Shown: piece by piece, positions 4,138 through 35,380 of the stretch
Layout: every line of letters begins with the position of its first letter
Position numbering within the stretch: position 1 is the first letter of the stretch
From: Saccharothrix sp. NRRL B-16348
GTDB lineage: Bacteria; Actinomycetota; Actinomycetes; Mycobacteriales; Pseudonocardiaceae
Direction of reading: 5' to 3'
Assembly: GCF_001280085.1 (NCBI RefSeq)
Contig: NZ_LGED01000234.1
Location: 1-46,262, forward strand
DNA length: 46,262 nt
Notes under the pieces: model-generated
Databases searched by the model: none
What the model saw: only the letters and a program-made list of their open reading frames with translations
Told to the model about the DNA's origin: nothing
Program-made: the position numbers and the translations under genes

Positions 4138-4883
4138 CCCGTCCTCCGCCCACCCGCGGCCGGACCGGGCCCGGAACCACCGGACCCCGGGTCGTCCGGT
4201 TCCTGCCCAGGGGTGTGCAACGGGTGGGTCCCCGCAGGCGCGGCCGGAGGCAGCGGTTCCAGCGCCAGCGGATGCGGCTCCCACGTCAACGCCTGCAACG
4301 CGGTGGCGACCTCACCCATCGACGCCTTGACGTACACGTGCGTCACACCCTGCCGGTTCGACGACGGCTCGGCATGTCCCGCGAACGCCCGCGCCACAGC
4401 GATACCGAAGTTACGCTCCACCCACGTCAACGTGGTGTGCCGCAACCAGTGCGCACTCACCCCCAACGTCCGCACGCTGTCCACCTGCCGACCGATGCGC
4501 CCCCACAGCGTCTCGTACCGCTTCTTCGTCAACGGCGACCCGTCGCGATCCCGCAGCACCCGGCTGGACTCCTCCCTCGCGCCGCGCGCGTGCGCATGCG
4601 CCTGCAGGGCCCGCATCAACCTCGGCGACACGGGCTGCCACCGCTGGGTGGACGCCTTCTCCCGCAACAGCACCAGACACTGCTGCGGATCCAGATCGCC
4701 CAGCCGCAACGCCAACGCCCCACCGGTGCGCGCCGCGGTCTCCAGGTGGAACCGCAGCAGCAACGCGTCCAACGCCCGGTCGTCACCGCTTCCGGTCGCC
4801 GCCCGCCGGATCTCCTCATACAGCTCCGGGCTCAACGCATGCCGCCGCGACCGGCCCTTGACCGGTCTGGGCACCCGCTTCAC
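4134..4883 (-). CDS. tyrosine recombinase, catalytic domain (3' half of an interrupted gene)
   Basis: A 249-residue frame with the catalytic signature of phage-integrase/XerD enzymes: the first arginine in ETAARTGG, the H-x-x-R box in SAHWLRHTT, the second histidine in FAGHAEPSS and the tyrosine nucleophile in THVYVKASMGE. The C-terminal ~40 residues are Pro/Ala/Gly-rich. The frame is the direct in-frame continuation of the frame at 5297-4890; a single TAG at 4892-4890 separates them. It could start independently at GTG 4883, three codons after that stop, or be made by readthrough; otherwise the gene is a nonsense-inactivated pseudogene. Without the N-terminal core-binding domain, DNA recognition would be incomplete. 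Its stop overlaps the start of the DUF2637 gene. Confidence 0.8.
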   Translation of the reverse strand: MKRVPRPVKGRSRRHALSPELYEEIRRAATGSGDDRALDALLLRFHLETAARTGGALALRLGDLDPQQCLVLLREKASTQRWQPVSPRLMRALQAHAHARGAREESSRVLRDRDGSPLTKKRYETLWGRIGRQVDSVRTLGVSAHWLRHTTLTWVERNFGIAVARAFAGHAEPSSNRQGVTHVYVKASMGEVATALQALTWEPHPLALEPLPPAAPAGTHPLHTPGQEPDDPGSGGSGPGPAAGGRRTG

Positions 4884-6463: not shown

Positions 6464-9400
6464 TCATTCGGTTGTGCCGAGAACCCTGAAGCACCTGGTG
6501 GCCAAGGGGGAGAGCAGTAGATCTCCCTCAGTGGTGGAGGACAACGGCCCGAACCAGCCAGCCACCCGCCTGAATACCTCTACCTCGGACGGTCCGCGTC
6601 CCGTCAGCTCCGAGAGATCCTTCGGCGCGCACGCCCCGTCGTACTCGACGAGGACGTCGATCAGTTGCTTCGCTTCGTCCCACCCGTCGAGCCCGGCGCC
6701 CGTCTGCCCCAGAAAGCTCCTGCACCACGAGGGATCCGACTGCGCCTCGCGAAGTCCATCCAGTGCGGTGACCACCGCACGGTCCGGGTTTTCCCCCCTC
6801 GCCATGACCTCGGAAGCGATCAGCTCCACCAGCAGCGGCCAGCCGTCGGTGAGTCCGAGCACTTGGTCGACGTACTCGTCGTCCGCGAGCCGCTCCAGAA
6901 CCCCGTCACCACGCCAGTGGAGAGGCAAGGTGTAGGGGTCGTACCGCTGCAGCGACATGACGTGGTTCTCCGCCTCCGGTGAGGTCGCCAGTTCGCGCAG
7001 CCATGCCAGGTTGGGCAGACCCGCGACGAGCACTGCTGCGCGGGACGCGCCACGCGCTTGGGGGATTCCGATCCCCGCCTGACCACCTACCGCGTACTCG
7101 TACGCGCGCAGACACGTGTCCACCGCGGCGTGCGGGCGCAGGTCTCCGATGACCAGCGAGCGGTGGTTACCGTCGGAGCCGGTTTCGAGCTTCGTCTTGA
7201 ACTCCTTCAGGGTCTTCATGTCGATGAGATCCACGTTGACGAGCTGGGACTGGAGCTCGTGAAGCGTCGGCACCACCTGGTCGACCCAGGTCGCCTCACT
7301 GCCGACCACCACCTTGGCGATGTTGCCCTTGCGGAGGAGCTGAGCGAGCTGGGCGTTGACCAGCGGGCGGCGGCGGTCGCCGGTCGCACGCACGGGCCGG
7401 TGCAGTTCCCTGGCCTGCCGCACGGGCAGCGCGGACCTCGGCAGCAGTTCTAGGCTCTGCGCCAGTTCATCCCTGGTGCCCAAAGCGCGCAGGACGGTCT
7501 CGTTGCGTATTCCCCTGCGATCGTGGTCGGCACTCGCGTCCGCGAGGATGCCCAGCCCCGCCAGTTCGTCGAGCAGTTGGCGGAAGGCGTCGAAATCGGT
7601 CTTCTCGAAACCACGTGGCCACGCCTCACGGCACCTGGTGAACAGCTGGGGATCGGGCATCCGCGCTTCCTGCCCGTGCTCGTAGGCGTGCAGCGCGAGT
7701 ACGTTCGTGATTACCTTCGTCCGCCCGTCCAGGTCCAGGGTCAGCTTCAGCGCCCTGCGCAGTTCGCGCCGAGTTTCCGGGTCCGAGAGCACGTCGACGA
7801 CCTGGGACGTGGTGATCCGCCATGGTGGGGGTGCGAGAGCAACCCGCGAGTTGCCCCGCGCCGCAAACTGGCGGTTGAGCAGTTTCTCCGCGACCAGTTG
7901 GATCAGGTAGGGCTGGTAGCTGCAGTGGAGCAGGATCTGCTGCGCGTCGTCCACGTCCAGCCGGTAGCCGAGCGCGGCGAGGGGTTCGGTGACCAGGTCG
8001 TAGGCGGGCTGCGATTCCAGCGGCCCGATCCTCAGGTGGCCGGTGGGGCTGAGCGGGCTGTTGCCCACCGAGTAGTGCTGGACGGAGTGGAGGCCGGCGA
8101 AGACGACCTGGCAGCGGGAACTCGTTCTGGTCTTCAGGTCGAGCAGCCTGCTCACGTTGGAGAACTTCGGCGCGTCCCCGTCGACGAACCCCTCGGCTTC
8201 GTCGAGCAGGATCAGCAGCCGTCTGTTCGACCTATCGTCCAACCAGCGCTGGATCGAGCGGGGAACCGCGTCCTTCAGGCTTCCCTTCTGGGAGCCAAAG
8301 GTCTTGCCGATGCCCTTGCCGGTCAGGCGCTGAGCGAGTTCGGCCCACACGAGGTCTGGGTTCTCGTCGATTCCCGGCAAGCGGTCGACCTCGAACCACA
8401 CCACCACGAGGGTCTTCCCGTCTGCTTCGCTCTCGACCTCGTGCATGAGTGCGCTCTTGCCCATGCCGCGCCCGCCGTAGATGATCGAAGGAGCCTTACC
8501 CGGTTGGAGCAACCGCCCCTTCTCCTGTTCCCTGCCGTAGAACATCTCGGCGGGGACGTCCGCCGTCTTCTCCGACCTGAACGGCTGCGTCGCGCTGAAC
8601 GGCAAGCTCAGCCTGACGAACGCGTCGTACTTCTCCCGGCGGGTCGCGATCCAGGTGAGCAGCGCGTCGTCGAGCAGCACAGCGGCCCGGCGGGACGGGT
8701 CCCACCACAGGGCCGCCAGCTCAAGCCTGTTCTCAGCAGAGAGAGTTCCGAGATAGCAGACGATGAGGGGCAGCGAGGACTGGTCCGCTTCGCGCCACTC
8801 GTCCAGTTCTTTCGTGGTCGGTTCGTTCCACACCACCAGGAGCCGGTATCGACCTCTCGCGATCGACCCGAGCGCCGGGACCGGGGAATCACCCGTGATC
8901 GACGCCTCGACTTCGAGGTAGCGCCGCCCTCGGGCCCACACCTTGAAAGAGGTGGTGCTCGTCAGATGGTCGACGTTGACCGCCCGGATGTCCAGGCCCA
9001 CGAGTCGGAGTGCGGGCAGGAGGGTGTCGGGTACCCGGCTTGACTGCCACCCGCCTGTGAATAGCGCACGCAACCGGACCCAACCCTGAAGACCATTCGC
9101 GACTTCATCTCGAACGGCCTCCGAAAGCGGCTCGACGGGCAGCGCGGGGTGCGCCGAGCCGTTGCGCACGGCTGAGATCAGCTCGTCGTCGATGCCTCCC
9201 GCGAGCACGTCGACACCTGCGGGGTAGAACGCCTCGAAGTCGTTCTCCTCTCGCTTGTGGAAGAAGTAGTCCCCGCTTTCCAGGTGCGCGAGGTCGTCAT
9301 CGGCGAGGTCTGTCCTTCCCCGGGTGATCCGGTTCCGGATCTGGGAGGCTTTCTCCCCCGGGCACCGGTCGGCGAGGTCGTCCAACCTGTCGTGCAAGCG

Positions 9401-9877
9401 CTGTGCCTCTGCCTGCCGCAGCCGGACGATCCGGCTTTCGACCGCGTTGAGCGACTTGGACGCCGTTCGCACGTCGCCGTCAGCCTCGTCCAGCACGCTC
9501 AACGCGCTGTCCACCAGACCGACCAGCTGGGCTTCGGTCACCGCGTCGAGCGACATCGGGACCTGGACGGCGGCGTTCGTTGTGGCGAAACCGCCGATGC
9601 CCGCCCTGAGCAGCTGGCGCCGCGTTTCCCTCAGGTCCGCCTTGAGCCGGGTGACGCGCTCCGCCCGGATCTTCGCGAGTCTGGTACGCGTCGCACCGCG
9701 CTGTGGCTCTTGGACGACGGCGACCAAGGCGGCTCCGGTCGCGAAGTCGTCCGCATCGGCTTTCGCCAGAGCGGTGGCTATCAGGTCGCAGCCGGTGTCA
9801 GGGACGTTCAGGAGTTCAGTGGCCCGTTCCAGGGAGGTGCGTCCAGGGGGAGGATCCGTCCAGTGGCGCTGTCCCAA
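6464..9877 (-). CDS. large P-loop ATPase (AAA/ORC or STAND-like), fourth gene of helicase operon
   Basis: About 1137 residues if translation starts at TTG 9877, which overlaps the previous gene by ~70 bp; no better start is seen. Residues 1-200 are helical with coiled-coil-like charged stretches. A beta-rich region (~residues 300-420) precedes the ATPase. The P-loop GGRGMGKS is near residue 470 and the Walker B LLILLDEAEGF near residue 557, followed by a sensor-like strand CQVVFAGLHSVQHY. The helical part (GYRLDVDDAQQILLHCSYQP) and later winged-helix-like segments resemble ORC/Cdc6- or STAND-type regulatory ATPases. The C-terminal ~150 residues carry a TDGWPLLVELIA segment also typical of such lids. 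Its likely role is an ATP-dependent regulator or sensor for the exonuclease-helicase encoded first in the operon; this is inference from synteny. No nuclease motif was identified. Confidence 0.7.
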   Translation of the reverse strand: MGQRHWTDPPPGRTSLERATELLNVPDTGCDLIATALAKADADDFATGAALVAVVQEPQRGATRTRLAKIRAERVTRLKADLRETRRQLLRAGIGGFATTNAAVQVPMSLDAVTEAQLVGLVDSALSVLDEADGDVRTASKSLNAVESRIVRLRQAEAQRLHDRLDDLADRCPGEKASQIRNRITRGRTDLADDDLAHLESGDYFFHKREENDFEAFYPAGVDVLAGGIDDELISAVRNGSAHPALPVEPLSEAVRDEVANGLQGWVRLRALFTGGWQSSRVPDTLLPALRLVGLDIRAVNVDHLTSTTSFKVWARGRRYLEVEASITGDSPVPALGSIARGRYRLLVVWNEPTTKELDEWREADQSSLPLIVCYLGTLSAENRLELAALWWDPSRRAAVLLDDALLTWIATRREKYDAFVRLSLPFSATQPFRSEKTADVPAEMFYGREQEKGRLLQPGKAPSIIYGGRGMGKSALMHEVESEADGKTLVVVWFEVDRLPGIDENPDLVWAELAQRLTGKGIGKTFGSQKGSLKDAVPRSIQRWLDDRSNRRLLILLDEAEGFVDGDAPKFSNVSRLLDLKTRTSSRCQVVFAGLHSVQHYSVGNSPLSPTGHLRIGPLESQPAYDLVTEPLAALGYRLDVDDAQQILLHCSYQPYLIQLVAEKLLNRQFAARGNSRVALAPPPWRITTSQVVDVLSDPETRRELRRALKLTLDLDGRTKVITNVLALHAYEHGQEARMPDPQLFTRCREAWPRGFEKTDFDAFRQLLDELAGLGILADASADHDRRGIRNETVLRALGTRDELAQSLELLPRSALPVRQARELHRPVRATGDRRRPLVNAQLAQLLRKGNIAKVVVGSEATWVDQVVPTLHELQSQLVNVDLIDMKTLKEFKTKLETGSDGNHRSLVIGDLRPHAAVDTCLRAYEYAVGGQAGIGIPQARGASRAAVLVAGLPNLAWLRELATSPEAENHVMSLQRYDPYTLPLHWRGDGVLERLADDEYVDQVLGLTDGWPLLVELIASEVMARGENPDRAVVTALDGLREAQSDPSWCRSFLGQTGAGLDGWDEAKQLIDVLVEYDGACAPKDLSELTGRGPSEVEVFRRVAGWFGPLSSTTEGDLLLSPLATRCFRVLGTTE

Positions 9878-12432
9878 GAGGCACCGGACAGCGAGAGGAG
9901 CGGGAAGTCCAGCACCGGGAATGGAAGCCGCTCGACCTCCGACGTGGCCACGTTCCCGCCGATGAGGTCGGCAAGTCGGGTGAGTGCGGCTCGCGCGGCA
10001 CGTGCGGCAGCCGCGACCAGTGGTTCCGGGTCACCCTCGTGCCCCGCGATCAGATCGGCCACGGCCACGACCCCGGTGAGCAGGGTCGCCTTGAGCTCAC
10101 CGAGCTGGAGTTCGTCGTGGTTGTTCGCGCTTGAGACGCTGTGTCGTTCGCAGGCTTCGACCCACCGCTCCACGGCAGTGACGTCCTCGCGCAAGGTCGA
10201 CAGCATCTCCTGCCGGACCGCGCCTGAGATCACCTTTCCCGCAGGCTGTCGGTGGGCCTTGGCGTCGGTGTCGATGAGCCGTTCGAGGGCGGACGTCTCG
10301 TTCAGCTTCCCCAGCACCGCCTTGACGGCTTGGACGTGTGCACGACGGTCGTCCGCCGCGGCGAGCAGGGCGTCGCCGAGAGTGCGCGGTTCTTCAGTCG
10401 GGAGAGCGGCCGGCGCTCGCAGGCGCGCCAGGACGCCGGCGCCTCGGGCAAGACGCATCTGCCGCTGGACACCCGCGCGTTCGCGGGCGTGCGCGGAGGC
10501 GGTCGGGACGTCATCATCTGCTCCCGCCGACGCCAGTGCGGCCACTCCTCTGCCCACGAGCATTCCCCTGCGGACCGATTCGCCTGCGGCACGGGCGAGC
10601 GAGCCGGTGTGTTCATCCATGTGGTCGGCCAGGTCGACGAGGAGGTTCCCCGCGCTGAAGTTCCCCGTCATCACAGCGGCGGTGAGCGCGGCCCCGGTGG
10701 TCAGTGACCTCGCCGCGTTCCCCTCGACGAGCAGGGTGGCCTTCGCAGTCCTCATGAACTCGTCGAGTTCCGGTTCGTGGACATCTCCGGGACCGGTCAC
10801 CGAGAAGGCCAGCGCAGCCAGTCCTGCGGCTTCGGCCAAGGCCGGGTCGTGCGGCTGGAGGAGGTGGTGCGCCAGGGCGAACTGCCCGTGGTCGAACCAG
10901 GCCACCGCTTTCGCGACGATGTCGGGATCGAGGCGATCGGCGGAGGTGGTTCCAGGACGCTCGTGACCCTGAGGTTCCGCCACAGGGGATGGAACGGGGG
11001 ATCGCGTGGACCTCACCGCACGGCCTTTGACTGCCTTGGCAGGGAGCGTGGTGCTCGGTGCTGAAGGTTCCTCCAGCGCTGGCGACCGGAGTTCCGGTGA
11101 CGATTCTGGTAGAGCGGGAGCGACAACCGCGTCCTGCACGCTTGGCGTGTCCTCGGCGGGGGTCGGTGCTGCCGCGCCCGCCGCAGCGTGCGCGTCCGCT
11201 TCAGGAGGGATGACCACCCGGCCCCGCACAGCGGCGGTCAGCAAAGGCAGGATCTCGTTGGGGGCTGTTTCCCTGAGCCGCTCGTAGCGGACCTCGACCT
11301 CCGAGTCGTCGCCGTCATCCCCTGCGGCGTCGAGCGCGAGGCGCACGACCGCGGTGAGCAGGTCAGCATCGGCGCGGTCTTGCTCTGTGGCGGGTGGCCA
11401 ACGGTCGAGGACACCGTTGACCAGACTCAGCACGACCTCCAACGCCTTGGCCGCACCACCGGGAACCTCCGCGCCCAGCAGTCTGCGGATCACGGTCACC
11501 TCGTCCGAGGAACGGGCTATCCGCCGCACGGCCGCGTCGATGGAGTCGAGCGCGGGCTCGACCTCGTGGGCGGACCGTTCCTCCAGCGCGGACGCCACAT
11601 CGAGCAGCTTGTGCCTGACGGCTGTGAGCTCGGCCAAGTCGGACTCGGTGGGAGCCAGTCCGCGTTCCAGCCCGCTGAGGACGCTGCGGCAGGTCACCAC
11701 AGCCCGTTCCACGGCCCGGTGAGCGGCCTCCGCGAGTTGGGCTGCTGCGCCCTCCGCTTCCTCGGCACCGCCTGCCACGGCTGCCCAGAACTCCCGGATC
11801 GCCGCGCGCGAGATGTCGTTGACGAGCAAGAGGTTGAGCGCGGCTGCGTCGTACTCCTCCAACCAGGTCAACGAGATGGCGAGGAACGGGGACTTCGGTT
11901 TCGGGCATAGGGCGACAGCGATGGCGCGGACCGACGAGGTCGTCGCGTCCTTCCCCAGCCACTCGGTTCCCTTGCTCGCCGACTCGATCAGTACGTCCCG
12001 CACGGGTCGGGTGAGGTCATGGGCCACTCGTCTCGCGAGTTCCTTCGACGTGTTCAGCCCACTCCGGAGTTTCACGGCGAAGTGGGCCTGCTGCAGGAGA
12101 GTTGGTCTGCGCTTGCTGTCGCCGGGAAGTCCGAGGCTCTTGAACAGGCGGCGCTGCTCGGCGATCGGCAGGTCCACCAGCAGCGCCTTCCAGGTGTCGT
12201 CGTCCACCTCGTGGAGCAGCCGGTCACACTGGTCCAGCACGTCTGGCATCACCGCTTCCGCGAGTGCGCGCACCGCACGGACGATGGACTCATCGGAGGC
12301 TGTGAAATCCACATCGACGCCTCTGAGCTGGATCGCCTTGATGAGGCGGTCGCTCCGCCCTTCACTTGACAAGGTGGAACTCCTCACGCGATGCCCGTGC
12401 ACCGCACTCGACAGGTCGTTGCTGGCGAACAC
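9808..12432 (-). CDS. unrecognised large helical protein, third gene of helicase operon
   Basis: 874 residues from GTG 12432, nine bases after the preceding stop. A TTG at 12372 behind a GAGGAG ribosome-binding site is an equally plausible start. The protein is almost entirely helical. Residues ~1-395 are Ala/Glu/Arg-rich with coiled-coil character. Residues ~400-500 are a Pro/Ala/Ser-rich, probably disordered linker. Residues ~500-870 start with AVAWFDHGQFALAHHLLQPH, which resembles a TPR-type helical hairpin. No catalytic motif, membrane segment or signal peptide is visible. The tight packing between genes two and four argues for a structural or scaffold subunit of the same complex. Function unknown. 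Confidence 0.7.
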   Translation of the reverse strand: MFASNDLSSAVHGHRVRSSTLSSEGRSDRLIKAIQLRGVDVDFTASDESIVRAVRALAEAVMPDVLDQCDRLLHEVDDDTWKALLVDLPIAEQRRLFKSLGLPGDSKRRPTLLQQAHFAVKLRSGLNTSKELARRVAHDLTRPVRDVLIESASKGTEWLGKDATTSSVRAIAVALCPKPKSPFLAISLTWLEEYDAAALNLLLVNDISRAAIREFWAAVAGGAEEAEGAAAQLAEAAHRAVERAVVTCRSVLSGLERGLAPTESDLAELTAVRHKLLDVASALEERSAHEVEPALDSIDAAVRRIARSSDEVTVIRRLLGAEVPGGAAKALEVVLSLVNGVLDRWPPATEQDRADADLLTAVVRLALDAAGDDGDDSEVEVRYERLRETAPNEILPLLTAAVRGRVVIPPEADAHAAAGAAAPTPAEDTPSVQDAVVAPALPESSPELRSPALEEPSAPSTTLPAKAVKGRAVRSTRSPVPSPVAEPQGHERPGTTSADRLDPDIVAKAVAWFDHGQFALAHHLLQPHDPALAEAAGLAALAFSVTGPGDVHEPELDEFMRTAKATLLVEGNAARSLTTGAALTAAVMTGNFSAGNLLVDLADHMDEHTGSLARAAGESVRRGMLVGRGVAALASAGADDDVPTASAHARERAGVQRQMRLARGAGVLARLRAPAALPTEEPRTLGDALLAAADDRRAHVQAVKAVLGKLNETSALERLIDTDAKAHRQPAGKVISGAVRQEMLSTLREDVTAVERWVEACERHSVSSANNHDELQLGELKATLLTGVVAVADLIAGHEGDPEPLVAAAARAARAALTRLADLIGGNVATSEVERLPFPVLDFPLLSLSGASWDSATGRILPLDAPPWNGPLNS

Positions 12433-12441
12433 CGGTCAGGA

Positions 12442-14892
12442 TCAGCCGACTTTGGACGCTCTTCCACGGTGCTTGCGCTTGCCGGAGGACTCCCTCACGA
12501 AGGTGATCCGAGGGGACAAAGTCGCGGGGTCCAGTCCCATCTTCCGCGCGTAGAGGACCGCGAGTTCCCGCTGCTGTGGCTGCTGCCCCATCGGTACCGA
12601 GCGCAGGTGACCACGGCGCAGGAAATCCTCTCCGGACGACGAGACACCGCTGTCGGCTCTTGGCGCCCGGCTCGGACGATCGGCAGGTGTGGGGTGCAGA
12701 CCGAGCACGAGTGCGAGGTCGCTCGACGCGGGTTTCTCGCGAGCGCAGGACTCCGCCTTCCACTCCGCGTCCGCCTGGTCCGTCTTCCTCGGTGTCAACC
12801 AGTCACCCTGGACATCGTGCTGGTGCAGCAGCACACCCCAGTTCAGGCGCACTGCCCCCTGGTCGGTGATGAACTCTTCCAACGCGTCGCACACGTCCAG
12901 CGGGGACAGCGATTCTGAACCGTCCACGCGCTTCTCCGACAACACCTTCTCCACGAATGTCGTCAGAGGGACGAAGAGTTCCGGCTTGCCGGGGCCGACG
13001 CGTAGACCGAACGTGCGGAAGAGCTGTCGCACCAAGGACTTGGTGAGCACGCCCTCCCCGGTTTCATCGTCGGTCGGGTCGATCAGGTGGCGCAGCAGCA
13101 CAGCCGAGTCGAACAAGTAGTCGATGGGGATGCCCTCGACGTCCACCGGCTCGTCCAAAGCCGTGCTGGTCACCCTTACCTGGAAGCTGTCCGTGCACCA
13201 AGAAGCTGTCAGGCGAATGCCGGAGAACATGCCGTCGGGCCAAGAGACGCCATGGAGCTTGGCACCGTCCAAGCGCGTTCGCTGACGTCGCTGCTTCGGG
13301 TCGAGTTCCGTCCCGGGATGGCTGACATCCAGTTGAAGGTTGGCGTCAACGGGCAGTTCGGAACGCATGGCTTCCGCGACCTTCGGCGTGAGCGGCAGGG
13401 TACCGGCCTCCAGGTGCCTGGGACCGAGGACGAACTTCCAGCACAGCGTCGTGTCGTCCACGTGGTGATCGCGCACCGCGGCCCCGTCAGCGTATTCGTG
13501 CTCCTCTTCGATCTGTTCCGCAGCAGGGACTTCCTCGGGCGTGCTGTCGTCAACGATCAGGACTTCTGGCTGCTGCGATTCGCTTTCCACCGGACTTCCA
13601 CCGCGAGCGGGCTCGTCGGCGGATACCGGTACGCCCTCTTCGACGCGCTCGTCCTCGATGTGGCCGGTGGTTCCCAGCCATCCGAGTGCCAGCGGCAGGT
13701 CGACCTCCTCCAGCAGTTCCTCCGCAACGGATTCCGCGACAGCCCCACGCCAGACCCCACCGCCCTGCCAGGCGTCGTCCAAACGGACGTGGACAGCGGT
13801 GCCGCCGATGGTCATAGCACCTCCGTGCTTGCGCGTCAGGTATTCGACGAGGTGTAGCTGGGCGCAGACCAGGGTGGTCGAGTAGCGCGGTCCGCGCAGT
13901 GCGTCGGCGGGCAAGTGCGGATCCGCCGGATCAGGGACGTCGGCGCGAAGAGCAGGACCGATGGCGAGGTAAGCAGGTCGGGCAATCGGAAGGCCGAACC
14001 GGCGTTTATGGGCAGGCAGGCAAGCGCGTGCGATGGCGCGGGAGAAGCGCTCTACATCGGCAGGGTCGACACCGCGGGTGTCCTCCTCGCCAGCCAACCA
14101 GCGCTCGTAGACCTCCGGGTGCAGGTACATCTCGCGCCAGCGGCGCATACAGGTCGCGTCCAGCAAAGCCGTCAGCACGTCGAAAACGGAGTGCAGGGTC
14201 TTCGCCAGTTCTTGCGCGTCGTCGACCGGACCCAGTTCGCGCAACGCCTCGCGCACTTCTGCTGTCCGCTGCCGAAGGAGGTGGGAGACGTAGAGCCTCG
14301 TGTCGTCCAGTTCGGCTTGCTCGTCGTTGGTGTATGAGACGCGCACGACGAGGTGACCTTCGTCGGTCAGCGTCTTTCCGAGGAGTCTGCGCAGCTTGCT
14401 GGGTTCTCCTGTCCCGAGAGCCGTGGCGTCGACCACCAGTCGTTCGGTCAGCACCACACCGCCCTCTCCGTCGCTCCGCGAAGTGGACAGCGCAGGGTTC
14501 TCTGCGCCGGCGGGAGCTCCGGACAGCCACGGGGGACAAGTACCGCCCATACTCAGCGCTGGGTGCTCACCGTGCCGGAACACGACCTCGCACAGCTGCG
14601 GCTTACCGCCGGTCGCCAGGCGGGCCAAGGAACCGGCTGGCAGTGGGTCGACCACCGCGTTCACCGTGACAACAGGGAGCGTCTCCAGATCGAGCAGTTC
14701 GGGGCTGTACTGCCCGCTGTCGAGGTCGTACCCGAAGGCCAAGGCGTTGAAGGCGAGCGGGACGCTCAGCGGGAGGCGTCGCGATCTTGCCAGTTCGCGC
14801 AGGAAGAGGACGGTCTCCGGGAACGAGTCGAGATCGCTGGTGAGGAGGTCCAGCGGAAGCACTCCGGTGCGCGGTACCGACGTGGTCGTCAT
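12442..14892 (-). CDS. unrecognised protein, second gene of helicase operon
   Basis: 816 residues starting MTTTSVPRTGVLPLDLLTSD. The ATG overlaps the stop of the helicase gene (ATGA) and has a purine-rich GGAGGGGAAGAG upstream, so the start is well supported and translation is coupled. Residues ~1-420 mix strands and helices with no recognised signature. An acidic, Glu/Pro-rich linker follows (~residues 425-470, around EEVPAAEQIEEEHEY). A second mixed domain contains LSPLDVCDALEEFI, and a basic tail ends in SSGKRKHRGRASKVG, which could contact nucleic acid. No Walker, nuclease or membrane motif was found. Its place directly behind the exonuclease-helicase suggests a partner subunit. Function unknown. 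Confidence 0.7.
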   Translation of the reverse strand: MTTTSVPRTGVLPLDLLTSDLDSFPETVLFLRELARSRRLPLSVPLAFNALAFGYDLDSGQYSPELLDLETLPVVTVNAVVDPLPAGSLARLATGGKPQLCEVVFRHGEHPALSMGGTCPPWLSGAPAGAENPALSTSRSDGEGGVVLTERLVVDATALGTGEPSKLRRLLGKTLTDEGHLVVRVSYTNDEQAELDDTRLYVSHLLRQRTAEVREALRELGPVDDAQELAKTLHSVFDVLTALLDATCMRRWREMYLHPEVYERWLAGEEDTRGVDPADVERFSRAIARACLPAHKRRFGLPIARPAYLAIGPALRADVPDPADPHLPADALRGPRYSTTLVCAQLHLVEYLTRKHGGAMTIGGTAVHVRLDDAWQGGGVWRGAVAESVAEELLEEVDLPLALGWLGTTGHIEDERVEEGVPVSADEPARGGSPVESESQQPEVLIVDDSTPEEVPAAEQIEEEHEYADGAAVRDHHVDDTTLCWKFVLGPRHLEAGTLPLTPKVAEAMRSELPVDANLQLDVSHPGTELDPKQRRQRTRLDGAKLHGVSWPDGMFSGIRLTASWCTDSFQVRVTSTALDEPVDVEGIPIDYLFDSAVLLRHLIDPTDDETGEGVLTKSLVRQLFRTFGLRVGPGKPELFVPLTTFVEKVLSEKRVDGSESLSPLDVCDALEEFITDQGAVRLNWGVLLHQHDVQGDWLTPRKTDQADAEWKAESCAREKPASSDLALVLGLHPTPADRPSRAPRADSGVSSSGEDFLRRGHLRSVPMGQQPQQRELAVLYARKMGLDPATLSPRITFVRESSGKRKHRGRASKVG

Positions 14893-17800
14893 GCTCTTCC
14901 CCTCCTGCTCTGCCCACCACGAGCACCTCGGGTGGAATTGGTAGTCGTCCTGGCCAACTGCTGCTCGCGCACGGCGGTCCCCGCTGCCACCAACCTGTCG
15001 ATCGCCAGGTCCACTTCGCGTCCGGTTACGTCGGGGTGTGCGCCGAACTGAGGTACCTCTCGGAGCCAGCGCGGTAGCGGTCGGTAGGTGGAGAGGCGTG
15101 CCACCCACTCGCGGTCCTTACCCGTGAGCACCGATGTGATCCGGCGCGCGGTCAGCCCTCTGAACGCCGCGGCCAACAGCCTCGCCACACTCGCGTCCAA
15201 CCGCGCCGCCCTCGTCGCGCTGTCGACCGGAGCGGGACGGGTGCTCCCATGGACCAACGCGTTCAGCGGCGTTCCCTCCACGGTGCCGGGCCCGCCTTCG
15301 GCGCCCGCGCACACCGAGCAGCGGACCCGGTCAGTCGCGCAGCACCCATCGGGCACCTCGACGTTGAAGTACTGGGCCAGGCGAACGTTCAGGCACGTGC
15401 GCTCCCGTCCGAAGAACCGGTGCAGGTGGTCGGCTTCGGCTCGTGCTCGCGCGATCTTCCCCTGCACCCTGGCCGCATACGCGACGGGCAGCACCGGTTC
15501 GGCCTCGTTCACCAGGGTGCGCTCCGCCAATCGGACCGCGATGAGCATCCTGTCGTTGGGGCGCTGCGAGACGTCCAGAGCTGCGCTGTCGTGCAAGTCG
15601 CACAACACCAACCACAACTCCGCAAGCCCCGGAACCGCCTCGGCGATCCCGTTGTGGGCGCAGGCGTGATCAGCCAGGAGATAGCCGCGTAGCGCCTCCA
15701 GAGGAGCGACTGCCTGGGACACGTCGCTCTCGCGCAGGGGCATGCGCATGACCGCGTTCACGACGGCTTGTGCCAACCCTTCCTCCGGAAGTCTGGTCCC
15801 CGGCCGCACCGAGACGATCGCGGGGACGTCACCTCCGTCGAGGACCACTCCCAGGTCCGCGAGAGCGGCGACCGCTCGGGTGATGCCAACCGTCCACTCC
15901 TGGACCAAACGGGTTTCCCGAGCTTGAGCGGGGGAGAGCACGCCTCCGTCGACGTCCTGCTCCAGCAGGTGCCGCACCACCGACCGCACGTCCAGGCGTC
16001 CCGTCCTCGCGATGCGCAGCACGGTGATGCCGAAACGCCTCAACAGCGCGGGGTCGAGGTCGAGCTGGGCCATCCACTCGGCGGTCCCCAAAGTTCGACT
16101 GGTGGCGTATGCCAGGGCGTGCGTGGTCACCTCCAGCTGGTCCGGTTCCTTCCCCGCCACGTCGCGACCACCACGTCCGAGTTGCTGGTAGAGCGCGGCG
16201 AGGTCGGTGGGCGGGCTGGCGCAGAACACGGTGCGCACGTCGTCCCGGTCGACGCCGAGCCCAAAGGCGGACGTGGCCACGACGACCATCCGCGCGGCGC
16301 CGTCCTGGACCCTGCCCGCCTCCTTGAACTCGAGGCTGACCGCCGCTTTGTCGATCTCGGCGAGCCTGCCGTGGAACTTGCGCAGCAGAACGGGGCGACC
16401 GTCCAGATGGTCGCGAAGGTGTGCGTGGAGCCAATCGGTCTGCCGGACGGTCAGGCAGTACACGATGGTATGGCCGCTCTCCGCGTCGACGATCTGCTCG
16501 GCGAGCGCCGCCATCGATCGACGGGAGCCGTTCCTGATCGCGCGACGACCCAATGTCAGTTCCGGGCGGATCGGGTTCGCCCGCACAACCACGAGGTCCG
16601 AGGGAGAACCGACGGCCGCGCTGTCGGCACCGGGAACCAGACCGATCAAGACCTCCTCGCGCAGCGTGTTCTCGATGGTCGGCGTGGCGGTGGCGGTGAG
16701 GGCCTGGAGAACGAGTTCTCCGGGCCCTGCCATGGCGCGCAGCTCACGCAGGAGGGCACCCGCCCGCCGGAAGCTGGGCCTGAAGTCCTCGCCCCACTGC
16801 ACATAGGTGTGTGCCTCGTCGATGGCGACCCGGCGGAGGGCGCCTGAGCTGACCCCTCGTTGGAGCGCCTGCCTGAATCTGGCTTGCGCGAGCCGTTCGG
16901 GACTCACGTAGACGATCTTGATTCCGTGTCGGGTGTCGCCGCTGAGCGCTTCCACCACCTCGGTGCGGCCGGTCCGGCTGACCGACTCGGGGAGGCTCGC
17001 CACCAGCGCGCGGACCGCACCGCCGATGGTGTGGTTGAGACCGAGCGCCTGGTCGTGCATCAGGCTGATCAGTGGGCTGACCACGACTGTGACGCCGGGG
17101 AGCACGAGGGCGGGCAGTTGGTAGCAGTAGCTCTTGCCGTACCCGGTCGGCAGGAGGGCGAGGCTGTCACGACCGCCGGCGACGGCCTTGATGACATCGC
17201 GCTGCTGTTCTTTGAGCGTGCGCGGCTCACCAGCGAGCAAGCTCGCCACCTGCTCGCAGCGGCGGACGACCTCGGCTTCGAGAGTGCCCGCGAGCCGGTG
17301 CGCGGAGACTTCCTCTTCGGTCAGCTCCAAGGCGCGGATCGCGAGCGTGGCGGGCAGGAGCGTGTGCTTGTCCAGGGCACGGGTGGTGGTCAGCTCCGCG
17401 ACCCGGTTCCGGGGGAGGACACCTGCCTCGGCCAGGAACGGCCAGATCCGCGCCCATGCCTGTCGCATCGTGACCACGTTGCCACCGGCGGGTTCCCCGG
17501 TGTCGGGGTCGGGCAGGAGCAACCCTTCGTCCAGGCTGCCGAGGAAGACCTGTCGGTAGAGCCTGCGCAGTGGCAGGTCCCCGGCCAGTTTGCGGTCGCT
17601 GATGACCACGACCCCTCGCCCGAGGTGGTTGCGGATCAGCCGTCCGACCGCCTGGCGCAGGTCGAGCGCGGCCAGCGGCAGGTAGTAGGTCGCGTTCGCG
17701 TGCTGGTCCGGATCGTCGAGCCCTTGCTCCTCTGCGGCCCTGCGCACCGATTCGCGCCGGGCGGCGATCACGGGGTCGGTGAAGACGGAGAACGGCAGCT

Positions 17801-20800
17801 TGTTGATCCACACCAAGTTGTTGCGCCCCGGCTCGCTCACGTCGACGCCGGTCCACAGACCGCGGGTTCCGACCAGCACGCCTCCGTGGTGTGGCTCGTC
17901 GCCGGTGAACTCGGCGACGGCGCGCGCTGTGCCGAGCACGACCTGGTTGTGCACGGGCACCAGACGACTGTCCTCGGCGTGCAGCAGGCCCAGCTCGTCC
18001 GCAATTCCACCTGCGGCGTTGCGGCTCGTTGTCAGCACCATCGCGCCGTGCATCCACGGTCCAGCGCTTCCCAGGCGTTCTTCTTCCCCGTCGTCCGCGA
18101 GCCTGGTCACCTCCCTGGTGAAGCCCGCTATCTGGTGCGCGACCGTGCGCATGGCCTGTCGCGGTTGCTCCGCCCAGGAGGGGAAGTCGGACAACGCCAC
18201 CAGACGGGCCTGGGTTCGGTAGTCGAAGGGACCGGCCAGTTCCAGGACGTCCGCGTCGGGCAGTCCGAGTCGAGCGCGGGTGTAGGCCCACCGGTCCGCT
18301 CCCGGTGTCGCGACCGTCAGGGTTGCCGAGAGCAGCGCCGTCCGCTTGAACGACGACAGGAAGCTCTGCCATGTCGGGTCGTTCGGCAGCTCGATCGGAC
18401 TTGCGGCGACGCGGACCCGGTAGTAGGCGAGGCCGCGACGATCGAGCTGGCCGGTCTCCGCCGCGAAGACGACGCGGTCCGGAACCACCGGGGACGCCTC
18501 GACCCCAGGCAGACCGACGATGGTCAGCTGCACCGCGTCGACCTCGTCGGTCGCGCTGTCCTCGGCTTCGTCCAAGTCCGCGTCCGGGGCGTCGGAGCCA
18601 CCGGGAGAATCCTGCGGTTCCCGGTGGTGGCCGAGGTCGGCGGGGAGCAGCCCGAGCAACGTGTCTTGGAGCTGTTCTGCGTTACCGCGCAGTGAGGACA
18701 ACCGCTGGAGGGCGGCGGAGATCCTCTGGAGGTCGAAGACATCGACGACGGTCCTGGCCACGTCGACCAGGTCACGGAGGCGGGCGAGCACCCGTCCGGA
18801 TTGCCCGACGAACTCACCCATGATCCGCCCCACGACACGTGCGTCGCGCGCCGCCTTCTCACCGGTGTGGGGACTGGCCAGGGTGAGCGTGCGACTGCCG
18901 ATCTGCGACTGCCCGGCTCGGGTGTCCATGATCCGGGACAGGGTCCGGCGCAGCCGCCCTTCTCCCCACCACTGGAACAGCTCCGCCAGTGCGGTTTCGG
19001 TCGGTGCGGTGAGCTGGGGCTGGTGCAGGTCGACGAGGAGGTGCTTGAGGGAGGCGAGTACGTCGTCGACGTCGTCGGCGGTCAGTTCGGCGGACAGTGC
19101 GTCCGTCGCGGCGTTCTCCAGCGCGTGCGCCTCGTCCGCGATGAGCGGCGTGGCGTCGGCGCGTGATGACAGCTCCTCCCAGTGCGTCAGCAGGAGTGCA
19201 TGGTTGGCGATGACGAGCCGGTGCGCGGACAGGGCTTCCCACACCTCGTCGGTGTGCGCGGCGAGTGGTGTGCTCTTCGGGTCGCGCCACTCGCCGTGAG
19301 CGGACTGGCTGAGGCTGGCAGCCCACACTGGCAGTGATGAACCGCAGTAGGCCTGGAAGAACGTCGGGAGGTCGACGGGATCGGTGCTGTGCGCAGCCCA
19401 GCGGTAGGTCTTGCTGCGTTCCGGGTGGACGAGGCGGAGAAGGACGAAGACGAGCAGCTCACGGAAGCGGGTGAACTCGGCGAAGCGAACAGGTTGCCCG
19501 GCGCCTTCCGCATCGGTACTGGTGGCGTCGGCGAGGGTGTGGACCAGTCCGCGCAGGCTCAGCCGGTTGCTCGAGCCCTTGACCACGTCGGTGGTCTCCA
19601 GGAGACCTCCGATCTTCTTCGCCAGCTTGGCCAGCTCGTTCGCGAGCTGGCTCTGCAACTGCTTGGTGTGGGTGGAGATGATTGCGCGGTGCTCCGGATC
19701 GGTCGCGAGCCAGTTGAGGGCCGCGGCCAACGCCGAGAGGCTCTTGCCCGTGCCGGTGGGTGCTTCCACGAGAACCGGACGGCCCGCATGCGCGGCATCC
19801 GTGATGGCCTGGGCGACCTGTTCCTGCGCAGGGCGGGGTTCCATCCGGCGCTCGTGCAGCACTTGGGCCAATGCCGAAGGGGTGATGCCGTGCTGGTGGT
19901 CGATCAGGCCGGCGGGCACCACGAGTGGCCTCCGCACAGCTCCACGTCGGGGGTGTTGTTCTGCGAGCAGGATGTTCAGCAGCTCACTGATCTCGGCCAC
20001 ACCGGGGCGCCCGCCGGTCCTCGGTGGGGCGGGGAGGAGCGCGAAGACGAGTCGCCACGCCGGGCTGTCCTTGCCGATCAGCAGAAGCAGGTCCAGCAAT
20101 CGTGGATCGAGTTCCACGACCTTACGAGCGCAGGCAGCCAGGAGGTCGGCGAGCAGAGCGGCGTCGTCCAGCGCGTCGTGGGCCACGCCGCGGCGTTCGA
20201 TCCCGATCGCGTCGGCGAGCTGGGCCAACTGGTGGCTGCGCGCAGTGGGCCACAGGCAGTTCGCCAAGTACAGGCCATCCACGCGTGCCGCGTCGAGCGG
20301 CTTGAGGTTCGTCGACGCGAACGCCTCGTCCAGAACAGGAAAGTCGAGCTGTTCGCCGTTGTAGGCGACCAGGACGTCAGCGCCTTCCGCCCACTGCGCA
20401 AATTGGGATAGCGCGTTTTCGGCTGGGATCGCCTCGACGGCGTGCCGCGCCCGGCGGCGGGGTGGCACCTCGTGGCCGTCGGACAACTCCAAGAACCTCT
20501 CGAAACTACGACCTTCTGCCACCCAGTCGACATCGTCGCCGGTCTTCACCGCGCCGATCTGCCAGATCTGTCGTGTCAGTGCTCCGCCGTCATCGATCTT
20601 GGCGCGGACAGAGGTCTCCAGATCGACCACGACAACGCGCACAGCGGCGTTCTTGTGCCCACGAGACGACTGCGCCTGATGCTCGGGCTCAGCGCTCGTG
20701 TTTACGGTCGAGGCCGAGATAGAGGGCTGCGGCTCGTGTGCGGCTCCAGGGGCTCTCAGCAGGGTGAAGCTGCCATCTGGCTCCACGAGCAGCTCACCAG

Positions 20801-20939
20801 CTTCGCTCGCTCGGCGCAGCATGGCCCGGGCCGCCTTGGGGACCGAGGGAACGTGCGCCTTGGCGAGAACGCCGCAAACGTCTTCCAGCCTTCCTCGCAC
20901 CAGCCCCGCCTTGCGAAGCAGTCCCGTCAAGCGCGTCAC
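14889..20939 (-). CDS. DEDDh exonuclease - DinG/XPD-like helicase - RecQ helicase fusion
   Basis: About 2016 residues (GTG 20939; TTG 20942 also possible). Residues ~1-60 look like a winged helix. Residues ~100-275 are a DnaQ-type 3'-5' exonuclease with all five acidic/His positions visible: DLE in VVVVDLETS, the D of YNGEQLDFPVLDE, and H and D in AHDALDDAALLADLL. Residues ~365-1110 form a superfamily 2 helicase of DinG/XPD type: APTGTGKS (~394), ADEAHALENA (~602), WTGVD (~1030) and QAVGRLIR (~1099). Residues ~1240-1870 form a RecQ helicase: LLPTGYGKSYCYQLPA (~1264), AIDEAHTYVQWGEDFRPS (~1375), QQLGRGGRD (~1588) and a RecQ-type zinc-binding cysteine set (~1850-1870, ending CSVCA). The DinG part shows only one cysteine where XPD/DinG enzymes carry four Fe-S ligands. 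It should unwind and trim DNA; it heads a four-gene operon. Confidence 0.9.
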   Translation of the reverse strand: MTRLTGLLRKAGLVRGRLEDVCGVLAKAHVPSVPKAARAMLRRASEAGELLVEPDGSFTLLRAPGAAHEPQPSISASTVNTSAEPEHQAQSSRGHKNAAVRVVVVDLETSVRAKIDDGGALTRQIWQIGAVKTGDDVDWVAEGRSFERFLELSDGHEVPPRRRARHAVEAIPAENALSQFAQWAEGADVLVAYNGEQLDFPVLDEAFASTNLKPLDAARVDGLYLANCLWPTARSHQLAQLADAIGIERRGVAHDALDDAALLADLLAACARKVVELDPRLLDLLLLIGKDSPAWRLVFALLPAPPRTGGRPGVAEISELLNILLAEQHPRRGAVRRPLVVPAGLIDHQHGITPSALAQVLHERRMEPRPAQEQVAQAITDAAHAGRPVLVEAPTGTGKSLSALAAALNWLATDPEHRAIISTHTKQLQSQLANELAKLAKKIGGLLETTDVVKGSSNRLSLRGLVHTLADATSTDAEGAGQPVRFAEFTRFRELLVFVLLRLVHPERSKTYRWAAHSTDPVDLPTFFQAYCGSSLPVWAASLSQSAHGEWRDPKSTPLAAHTDEVWEALSAHRLVIANHALLLTHWEELSSRADATPLIADEAHALENAATDALSAELTADDVDDVLASLKHLLVDLHQPQLTAPTETALAELFQWWGEGRLRRTLSRIMDTRAGQSQIGSRTLTLASPHTGEKAARDARVVGRIMGEFVGQSGRVLARLRDLVDVARTVVDVFDLQRISAALQRLSSLRGNAEQLQDTLLGLLPADLGHHREPQDSPGGSDAPDADLDEAEDSATDEVDAVQLTIVGLPGVEASPVVPDRVVFAAETGQLDRRGLAYYRVRVAASPIELPNDPTWQSFLSSFKRTALLSATLTVATPGADRWAYTRARLGLPDADVLELAGPFDYRTQARLVALSDFPSWAEQPRQAMRTVAHQIAGFTREVTRLADDGEEERLGSAGPWMHGAMVLTTSRNAAGGIADELGLLHAEDSRLVPVHNQVVLGTARAVAEFTGDEPHHGGVLVGTRGLWTGVDVSEPGRNNLVWINKLPFSVFTDPVIAARRESVRRAAEEQGLDDPDQHANATYYLPLAALDLRQAVGRLIRNHLGRGVVVISDRKLAGDLPLRRLYRQVFLGSLDEGLLLPDPDTGEPAGGNVVTMRQAWARIWPFLAEAGVLPRNRVAELTTTRALDKHTLLPATLAIRALELTEEEVSAHRLAGTLEAEVVRRCEQVASLLAGEPRTLKEQQRDVIKAVAGGRDSLALLPTGYGKSYCYQLPALVLPGVTVVVSPLISLMHDQALGLNHTIGGAVRALVASLPESVSRTGRTEVVEALSGDTRHGIKIVYVSPERLAQARFRQALQRGVSSGALRRVAIDEAHTYVQWGEDFRPSFRRAGALLRELRAMAGPGELVLQALTATATPTIENTLREEVLIGLVPGADSAAVGSPSDLVVVRANPIRPELTLGRRAIRNGSRRSMAALAEQIVDAESGHTIVYCLTVRQTDWLHAHLRDHLDGRPVLLRKFHGRLAEIDKAAVSLEFKEAGRVQDGAARMVVVATSAFGLGVDRDDVRTVFCASPPTDLAALYQQLGRGGRDVAGKEPDQLEVTTHALAYATSRTLGTAEWMAQLDLDPALLRRFGITVLRIARTGRLDVRSVVRHLLEQDVDGGVLSPAQARETRLVQEWTVGITRAVAALADLGVVLDGGDVPAIVSVRPGTRLPEEGLAQAVVNAVMRMPLRESDVSQAVAPLEALRGYLLADHACAHNGIAEAVPGLAELWLVLCDLHDSAALDVSQRPNDRMLIAVRLAERTLVNEAEPVLPVAYAARVQGKIARARAEADHLHRFFGRERTCLNVRLAQYFNVEVPDGCCATDRVRCSVCAGAEGGPGTVEGTPLNALVHGSTRPAPVDSATRAARLDASVARLLAAAFRGLTARRITSVLTGKDREWVARLSTYRPLPRWLREVPQFGAHPDVTGREVDLAIDRLVAAGTAVREQQLARTTTNSTRGARGGQSRRGRA

Positions 20940-20942
20940 CAA

Positions 20943-21890: not shown

Positions 21891-23181
21891 TCACCGGTTC
21901 AAGTCGTCGAGCAGCAGTGCCAAGACCGCCTCTTCGTGCACCGCGACCTGGTGCTCGCGCATCGCCTCGGCCAGTCCGGGGCTCCACGGTGTGTCTGGTA
22001 CCGGGCCGCCGAGCGGAAGACGAGCCGAAACGACCGCGTCGAGGTAGTCGCCGGCCGAGTAGCGCCATGGCCGCACGCCCCGGTCGAACAGGCGCTTGGC
22101 CATGCGAATACCTGCGACGTCGAAGTCGCCGTGGTACCTCACGGTGACGCCATCGGCGATGAGCCGGTCCAGCGCATACAGCGCCACGGTGGCGGGGTTG
22201 CCCGAGGTGCACAACAACGGCGTCGACGTGCCCGCCCGTGCTGCCGCCTGGAGGACCTGGGGGTTCTCGCAGGCGAACACGTCCTGCCCGGCGACCGCCC
22301 ACGGGCGTTCCGCAGCGGCGCGCCACTCCTGCACCGTCACGTGGGTGACCAGACCGAGGTCGGCACGGGCACGCATTACCACCGACCACGGGTCGTCGCC
22401 CGGTGGGCGCACCGCCCACGTCAAACAGGGTGCCCGACACCGCGTCGGGGCTGACTCCCACCGCACTCCACAGGTCCCGGCGCGCGGCGGCGGTCGTAGG
22501 GAAGGGCGTCCCGGTCGCAGCGGCGAGCGCGCGGAGGACCACGGCGGCGGTCACCTGCCCGTTGTCCAGCGCGTGGGCGTCCCCGCACACGGCGCCGGCC
22601 AGTTCGGCGAGTTCGAAGGCCGACTCGACGGGAACCGCGTCCGCCACGGCGCCCGGCGTGCGGGTCACCAGCGGCACGATCCGGGCCAGTGTCCGCAACA
22701 CCGCCGTCGCATGCCGGATCACGGTTTCGGCTTCGTCGCCCGCACGGATGAGCAGTCCTGTGCGGCGTAGTCCGTCCCGCCACGTGGGTACCCATGGCGC
22801 GGCGTCCAGTCCGGATTCGGCTACGACGCGCTCCCAGAACGCCCACAGGTCGACCTTCGTCACCTCACGCGCCCTGCTCGCCGCTTTCCGGTCCACGAGC
22901 GGGCTGCCGGTCAGTTCCGCGACCACGGTGATCAGCCCGTGGCCGATCGCCGAAGCCCTGAGCGCGGCATCCAGCTCGGCCAACCGGACCCTGCCCCGCC
23001 CTTGGGACACGGTGCGTCCGAGCAGCCCGGACAGGGTTTCGGCCGCCTGGTAGTCCAGGTCCACGACGATGACTCCGGTCGACGAGAGCCCGTTGCCCTC
23101 CAGGCGTTTTCGTACCAAGCGCCACAACGGCTCCAGACCGGCCAGGTAGTCGCGGGCCGGTGCCGGGATGTAATCGGCCAC
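21891..23181 (-). pseudogene. jetD: Wadjet type II JetD (TIGR02679/toprim-like), one-base frameshift
   Basis: GTG 23181 follows the jetC stop by three bases. The first frame runs through the N-terminal part of the family (ARDYLAGLEPLWRLVRKRLE onwards) to SGTLFDVGG near 22414. There one extra G (GGCGGTGCG instead of GGCGTGCG) shifts it out of frame. The correct continuation lies one frame over: RPPGDDPWSVVMRARADLGL, then a toprim-like domain with the glutamate of FACENPQVLQ and the D-x-D of RYHGDFDVAGIRMAKR, ending LLLDDLNR at 21891. JetD is the plasmid-DNA nuclease of Wadjet, related to the toprim part of topoisomerase VI/Spo11. All catalytic motifs survive on the two sides, so the break is either recent or a sequence error. 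Confidence 0.85.
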
Positions 23182-23184
23182 AGC

Positions 23185-27377: not shown

Positions 27378-27401
27378 GTGATCTCCATCAACTCGGGCGG
27401 T

Positions 27402-30157: not shown

Positions 30158-30388
30158 CGTGTGGGTGCCCTCCTCGAAAGGGACATCGCTTCGCGCGCAG
30201 CTCGTGTAACACAACACCGCAGCGGGGCCGCCCACCCGGAGACGCCAACTTGCCATCCCGCTTCAGCGGATTCGCGGTGAGCCCTTTCCGAGCTCAAGGT
30301 CCTGGGCAGGTAATGTGCTCACCGGGCCGAAAGCGGCACCCGTGACGTGGCGAATGGTGAGGCAGCGCGCAGCACGAGCGTCGGCCGA

Positions 30389-31153: not shown

Positions 31154-31156
31154 CCT

Positions 31157-35073: not shown

Positions 35074-35380
35074 CAGCCTCTTTGTAGTGGTTCGTCGAGC
35101 CCAACGCCGAGTGCCGCGCCTCAATGTCACTCGAACAGCAGCATCAGCTGCGTCGGGAAGCCGGTTCAGACATGAGTGAGCCTCGTTTTGGTCGCCGGGG
35201 CTCAAGGTGACGACATGATGGCGGCTATGGAGGTTGTAGAAGTACGAGGCGAGAGGCGGCACAGTTTGAGTCGAGCCTCCCACCACGGGTAAGTCTCAGC
35301 CCCTGCTGACCGCAGTTGCGAGAACAACCCAGCCGGACCCTGTACCTGCCGATAACCTCATCCATGCAGGTAGAGAGCGT

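What the first reader, a model, noticed from the sequence alone, without database searches (positions are those of the whole stretch)
6464..20942. Four-gene operon led by a DnaQ-DinG-RecQ triple fusion: candidate undescribed defence system
Seen in sequence: a ~2016-aa protein joins an apparently intact DEDDh exonuclease, a DinG/XPD-type helicase and a RecQ helicase with zinc motif. It is followed, with overlapping or near-overlapping starts, by an 816-aa protein, an 874-aa protein and a ~1137-aa ATPase with GGRGMGKS P-loop. Known: helicase-nuclease fusions plus large ATPases are the usual makeup of anti-phage systems, and this set sits next to Wadjet and NTPase sensors. I could not map the four genes to BREX, DISARM, Zorya, Druantia, Hachiman or Dpd. 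Inference: a DNA-processing defence complex.
Basis: partly seen in the sequence, partly recalled or inferred. Interest (0 to 1): 0.85.

Follow-up and report, generated by a model that had tools for sequence, protein, structure and literature searches.

The report
Actinomycete helicase-nuclease defence operon candidate
Soil actinomycetes share a rare, conserved three-gene set (a giant enzyme with two DNA-unwinding motors and a nuclease, a likely DNA-binding partner and a large switch-like ATPase) that often sits among known anti-virus genes and looks like an unnamed defence system, although this has not been tested in the laboratory.

Summary
The 2017-aa DEDDh-DinG-RecQ fusion (G1) and the 816-aa protein (G2) are there; the "third" and "fourth" genes are halves of one ~1970-aa gene (G3), split here by a one-base gap near 9849. 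G1-G2-G3 is a recurrent actinomycete operon. In 36 loci from a scan of species genomes, G1 lies directly before G2 in 27, is absent in 8 Streptomyces loci (probably lost) and cannot be judged in 1; G3 follows in 33, the other 3 contigs ending first. G1 keeps its nuclease and helicase motifs. G2 matches no Pfam, NCBIfam or PADLOC family; its model resembles EcoRII-N/B3 DNA-binding folds and winged helices. G3 has a STAND/ORC-type AAA+ core. Neighbours include Wadjet, Gabija, Sng, Lamassu and, in five loci, pPIWI-RE genes, which adjoin G1 in three. Nothing I searched names the set. Most likely it is an unnamed anti-invader system: G2 reads DNA, G3 switches, G1 unwinds and degrades. Defence is inferred from context, not shown. 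This window's copy is broken as assembled; whether by mutation or sequencing error I cannot tell.

The parts
14889..20942 (-). G1: 2017-aa DEDDh exonuclease - DinG-type helicase - RecQ-type helicase fusion
   Evidence: motifs conserved in relatives
20142..20633 (-). G1 DEDDh (RNase_T) exonuclease domain, residues 104-267
   Evidence: PF00929 E 2.8e-8; D107, E109, D200, H255, D260 kept in 25 of 25 aligned rows that cover them
17544..19844 (-). G1 DinG/XPD-type helicase, residues 367-1133, without enough cysteines for an FeS cluster
   Evidence: 0-2 Cys between motifs I and II in 27 of 27 rows
16158..17216 (-). G1 RecQ-type helicase core, residues 1243-1595; a cysteine cluster like the RecQ zinc motif (label recalled) follows at residues 1850-1878
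   Evidence: PF00270/PF00271 above cut-off; TIGR00614 190 bits, below its cut-off 219.8; motifs
12442..14892 (-). G2: 816-aa protein of unknown family; start overlaps the G1 stop (ATGA)
   Evidence: 35 relatives; no Pfam, PADLOC or NCBIfam match; junction
13096..13464 (-). G2 residues 477-599: predicted EcoRII-N/B3-like DNA-binding pseudobarrel
13663..14835 (-). G2 N-terminal region (residues 20-410) with invariant E102, D155, R169, D372, D373, Q376, W381, R382; possible active site
   Evidence: alignment A3 of 57 sequences; function inferred only
9808..12432 (-). G3, first part (ORF3, 874 aa): poorly conserved N-terminal half of the ~1970-aa protein
6464..9877 (-). G3, second part (ORF4, 1137 aa) with AAA+ core, GGRGMGKS
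7430..8587 (-). G3 STAND/ORC-Cdc6-type AAA+ module with winged helix (ORF4 residues 431-816)
9808..9877 (-). Overlap of the two G3 frames; holds the single-base gap relative to S. luteola (near 9849)

Best explanation
This is an unnamed three-gene anti-invader system of Actinomycetota. Shown: conserved operon, conserved motifs, patchy spread, defence genes next to a good part of the copies. Inferred: G2 is the DNA-reading and adaptor subunit (B3-like plus winged-helix regions, and perhaps an active site in its N-terminal half). G3 is a STAND/ORC-like ATPase that senses the invader or loads the complex on DNA and switches it on. G1 is the effector: two helicases, whose known relatives run in opposite directions (DinG 5'->3', RecQ 3'->5'), unwind the target while the DEDDh domain degrades the exposed 3' strand, a RecBCD-like logic in one chain. 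The copy in this window is probably inactive as assembled, because G3 is frame-broken; I cannot tell mutation from sequencing error.
For: Recurrence: G1 before G2 in 27 of 36 loci, G3 after G2 in 33 of 36, the other 3 contigs ending first. At 24 of 26 G1-G2 junctions G1 ends in ATGA or GTGA and that start codon is in frame with G2. In 11 of 12 other G2-bearing genomes of the family sample G1 lies next to G2. Pairwise distances of the three proteins correlate (r 0.93-0.96, 20 loci, 0 of 2000 permutations as high). Exonuclease and both helicase motifs intact. Patchy: 13 of 297 family genomes, 5 of 394 class genomes, the window's own included in both. Defence genes recognised one by one beside 11 of 36 loci and Wadjet in the window. 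Folds.
Confidence: 0.6

Rival explanations
1. G1-G3 is an accessory module of pPIWI-RE systems (REase, DinG, PIWI) that has partly become independent: the PIWI module finds the target and G1-G3 destroys it or acts as back-up.
For: pPIWI-RE genes lie beside the operon in 5 of 36 loci. A full REase-DinG-PIWI triad ends 12 bases before G1 in L031; its near-copy L032 has PIWI at the same distance. In L036 REase-DinG runs into G1 with a 4-base overlap and a second full triad lies downstream. HTH-REase-DinG-PIWI ends 620 bases upstream in L009. A PIWI-RE-type ORF starts 85 bases after G3 in L013. About 0.09 PIWI genes would be expected within 10 kb under random placement.
Against: In the other 31 loci no pPIWI-RE gene was recognised (family lists show 25 of 100 and 25 of 29 families, so single matches may be hidden); 20 of 36 genomes have no PIWI hit at all; none in the 16 window ORFs scanned. 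Random placement is a weak null, since defence genes cluster. G2 is not a pPIWI-RE relative by profile comparison.
Confidence: 0.15
2. It is an accessory DNA repair or recombination complex (ExoDinG/RecQ type processing of damaged forks), not defence.
For: G1 domains have repair homologues and ORC/RFC-like folds are replication folds.
Against: Rare and patchy, families mixed in the G2 tree, defence genes beside a good part of the copies; G2 has no recognised repair relative.
Confidence: 0.12
3. G2-G3 is a STAND-type sensor/regulator module for which G1 is one of several interchangeable partners.
For: 8 of 36 loci have G2-G3 without G1; G3 has an NLR/CED-4-like AAA+ core.
Against: No recurrent replacement gene was found in the flanks; the seven G1-less loci in the G2 tree fall in Streptomyces with two changes, consistent with loss, although the place of L035 is weakly supported.
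Confidence: 0.1

Closest known systems
ExoDinG (DEDDh-DinG fusion helicases; reviewed in PMC11981726, passages read)
   Same: N-terminal DEDDh exonuclease fused to a DinG-type helicase without enough Cys for an FeS cluster
   Different: G1 adds a RecQ-type helicase with a zinc-motif-like cysteine cluster and lies in an operon with G2 and G3; the term RecQ does not occur in the main text of that review
pPIWI-RE three-gene system (PMC3702460, passages read)
   Same: Three closely spaced genes including a DinG-type helicase; predicted invader restriction; sometimes contiguous with G1-G3
   Different: No PIWI and no recognised REase in G1-G3; different gene order; G2 not related to PIWI by profile
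Dpd system (DpdF)
   Same: PADLOC DpdF models hit the RecQ part of G1 (best E 1.5e-65)
   Different: The hits lie within the helicase core; the score is far below the NCBIfam DpdF cut-off (166 vs 550 bits)
BREX / DUF499 systems (PMC12839542, outline and one passage read)
   Same: Large ORC/STAND-like ATPase plus helicase in one operon (for BREX: from the paper's outline and recall)
   Different: No BREX model matched G2 or either half of G3; DinG and RecQ do not occur in that paper's main text
RecBCD/AddAB
   Same: Two motors plus nuclease (functional analogy, recalled)
   Different: No homology claimed or tested

Membership tests
ExoDinG | N-terminal DEDDh exonuclease fused to DinG helicase | tested here: met
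   but the NCBIfam dinG_rel score 188 is below its cut-off 547.7
ExoDinG | No additional helicase after the DinG part (my reading of the review's description) | tested here: not met
   RecQ-type helicase at residues 1243-1595
pPIWI-RE system | PIWI-RE gene in the operon | tested here: not met
   no PADLOC pPIWI-RE match listed for the 16 window ORFs scanned (for G1 25 of 31 families are listed); G2 vs PIWI profile probability 0.2%. Contiguous PIWI genes exist in some relatives
pPIWI-RE system | REase-fold partner gene | tested here: inconclusive
   no PADLOC match in the window; the alpha/beta regions of G2 (N-terminal) and G3 (ORF4 253-430) were not assigned a fold
BREX | PglZ plus BrxC-type ATPase | tested here: not met
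   no PADLOC match in G2, ORF3, ORF4 or two ORFs downstream; no BREX model among the matches of ten upstream ORFs
Dpd | full-length DpdF with the dpdA-K set | tested here: not met
   helicase-core hits only, below the NCBIfam cut-off; no other Dpd model among the listed matches of 16 window ORFs
Type IV-A CRISPR (CasDinG) | csf genes and a CRISPR array beside DinG | tested here: inconclusive
   DinG-type csf4 models hit G1 generically; no repeat-array search was run
Anti-phage defence system (function) | protects against phage or other invaders | not testable with these tools
   context only

The most novel reading that the evidence does not exclude
A new class of anti-invader machine: one 2000-aa chain with two opposite-polarity motors and a 3'-5' exonuclease (a one-chain RecBCD-like shredder), aimed by a B3-type DNA reader with its own active site and fired by an NLR/ORC-like ATPase, which in some lineages has been joined to a pPIWI-RE triad as a six-gene, possibly nucleic-acid-guided system.
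Probability: 0.25. Interest if true: 0.87.

Novelty: new variant of a known kind. Interest (0 to 1): 0.66.

Why it matters
If true, it adds an unnamed multi-gene system to actinomycete immunity, with a protein family (G2) that no searched library describes and a DEDDh-DinG-RecQ fusion that the passages I read do not mention. The repeated contiguity with pPIWI-RE genes offers a concrete lead on how that little-studied PIWI branch works. G1 also makes a simple biochemical question testable: whether two opposite-polarity SF2 helicases in one chain act as a bipolar unwinding nuclease.

Tried and rejected
Rejected: four-gene operon (G3 is one gene). Rejected: programmed frameshift in G3. G3 is one open frame in 31 of the 33 loci that hold it (L019 is split, L039 is cut by its contig end), and the S. 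luteola copy is open at the window's break while its G1 is broken elsewhere. Rejected: G2 as a diverged pPIWI-RE protein.

Tried without result: PDB sequence searches with profiles of G2, G3 and two G2 regions (none; 83, 84: 15 and 1 matches, best E 0.44 and 1.1, not convincing); Foldseek of G2 against PDB and viral models (none at E<=0.001); viral contigs and phage records (none). Plasmid records gave four distant partial hits, in Streptantibioticus and Streptomyces. A composition-based count of frame switches did not separate real gene junctions from breaks (3 in the window, 3-11 in each of seven control stretches), so I cannot say whether the window's breaks are sequencing errors. Flank-gene clustering found no fourth conserved gene: the widest clusters span 3 loci.

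PADLOC on flank ORFs: 193 of 234 collected ORFs were scanned (those of 120-1700 aa, the window's left out) in two batches that matched 100 and 29 families, against 19 for 96 ORFs from seven stretches of the window's own genome. That control itself holds MADS-like and JetC-like genes, so it is not clean; the tool tells family counts and lists 25 families, not how many ORFs matched. Structure rows that do not list a family exclude nothing. Literature: in ten searches no listed title, abstract start or passage that I read describes the set; that library holds open-licence PMC papers only.

Full report
What is there. On the minus strand the order is G1 (20942 to 14889), G2 (14892 to 12442) and G3 (12432 to 6464). 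G1 is 2017 aa with RNase_T/DEDDh, DinG-type and RecQ-type domains. G2 is 816 aa with no match in PADLOC, Pfam or NCBIfam; over 32 family members only stray Pfam hits of E>=0.013 appeared. Of 20 relatives found with ORF4, 16 are 1791-1988 aa and 4 are 765-1576 aa. G3 is a single open frame of 1877-2198 aa in 31 of the 33 loci that hold it; L019 is split and L039 is cut by its contig end. A nucleotide alignment with Saccharothrix luteola (L005) shows a single one-base gap in 5963 columns, in a C run near window 9849. The S. luteola G3 is open there but its G1 has a one-base gap at the place matching window 16151. By ORF layout 6 of 37 loci, window included, have a break in one of the three genes: window G3, L005 G1, L014 G1, L021 G1, L019 G3, L040 G2; L021 could also be a natural split.

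Recurrence. A scan of genome contigs (84,980 species genomes by the tool's description) with a G2 profile gave 36 loci, all with actinomycete titles. G1 lies directly upstream of G2 in 27 (in L028 its first domain is cut off by the contig end), is absent in 8 Streptomyces loci, and cannot be judged in L039, whose contig starts there. G3 lies downstream in 33; the contigs of L028, L033 and L034 end too early. At 26 of the 27 G1-bearing loci (L005 left out, its G1 being broken) the junction was read: 16 end in ATGA and 8 in GTGA with the start in frame with G2; L011 ends in CTGA and L038 has no overlap. The 8 genomes without G1 at the locus show only RecQ-like hits elsewhere. In an even sample of 297 genomes of the window's family 13 carry G2, in 9 of 46 genera, and in 394 genomes of the class 5 do, with another G2 as query; both counts include the window's own genome. 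G1 was sought in 16 of those genomes: 12 have it. Of the 12 family members other than the window's genome 11 have it, each next to G2, G224 being the exception; G484 has it too, and G049, G506 and G692 do not.

Co-evolution. For 20 loci with all three genes (window included, G3 taken as ORF4 there) distance correlations are 0.952 (G1-G2), 0.925 (G1-G3) and 0.963 (G2-G3), with 0 of 2000 permutations as high. Shared descent alone can give this, and no unlinked gene was used as control. In a G2 tree of 31 rows the seven G1-less rows (L034 not included) need two changes and sit among Streptomyces, which fits secondary loss; the branch that places L035 is weak (82/26). Families are mixed elsewhere in the tree, which fits transfer.

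Neighbourhood. In the window the next genes upstream match Wadjet JetA2, JetB2, JetC2 and JetD2, and a weak TIR match lies at 34318-35286. In the loci, individually recognised neighbours are pPIWI-RE genes (L009, L013, L031, L032, L036), SngC (L012), GajB (L017), JetC1 (L011), JetB2 (L007), LmuA (L040) and a JetA-D set (L025, assigned because its ORFs match the window's Jets): 11 of 36 loci. Twenty of the 193 scanned flank ORFs, picked for length, were read one by one: 10 had no match and one (L015) only weak generic AAA matches. The batch scan and its unclean control are told under Tried and rejected.

pPIWI-RE link. In L031 a complete REase-DinG-PIWI triad ends 12 bases before G1 in the same direction; L032 is a near-copy. 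In L036 REase-DinG runs into G1 with a 4-base overlap, and a second complete triad lies downstream, its PIWI gene about 7 kb after G3. In L009 HTH-REase-DinG-PIWI ends 620 bases upstream. In L013 a PIWI-RE-type ORF starts 85 bases after G3. Starts are those of the longest ORF, so distances may be off by a few codons or more. PIWI hits occur in 16 of the 36 genomes. If 22 of those hits were placed at random, 0.09 would be expected within 10 kb of an operon; 5 were seen, or 4 counting L031 and L032 once. Clustering of defence genes weakens this null.

Reading. The best account is an unnamed anti-invader operon: reader (G2), ATPase switch or loader (G3), unwinding exonuclease (G1). The 3'->5' polarity of RecQ is recalled; 5'->3' for a DinG relative is taken from a reference title in PMC11981726. 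The RecBCD analogy is recalled. The papers read in passages (PMC3702460, PMC10853773, PMC11981726, PMC12839542, PMC7641849) do not describe the set in what I saw; all other papers were seen as search listings only. Novelty is rated as a new variant of the known kind 'multi-gene helicase-nuclease-ATPase defence operon', because function is untested and the kind is familiar even though the families and the order are not.

Noticed in passing
window 21930-30256 (-): Wadjet type II JetA-JetD next to the operon; JetC (break between about 26.4 and 26.5 kb) and JetD (near 22.4 kb) each continue in another frame, so two Wadjet genes also look frame-broken in this assembly.
   Followed up: partly
window 34318-35286 (-): ORF with weak TIR-effector matches (PycTIR E 7.3e-6), overlapping ORF 33449-34654 in another frame.
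   Followed up: no
   Followed up: no
window 30389-33331 (-): Two ORFs (254 and 724 aa) beside JetA without any PADLOC or Pfam match.
   Followed up: no
window 2986-4284 (-): ORF with a DUF2637 match at its C-terminal part (E 3.9e-5).
   Followed up: no
L108/L109 (G352:C13): Two pPIWI-RE sets flank one G1-G2-G3 operon in Acrocarpospora pleiomorpha; the upstream one has REase and DinG but runs straight into G1 without a PIWI gene.
   Followed up: partly
L019, L022-L026, L034, L035: Streptomyces loci with G2-G3 (L034: G2 only before its contig ends) and no G1; no common replacement gene found.
   Followed up: partly
L035:2040-4895: 951-aa ORF near a G1-less locus that matched no other of the loci L005-L040 or the window; not identified.
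   Followed up: no
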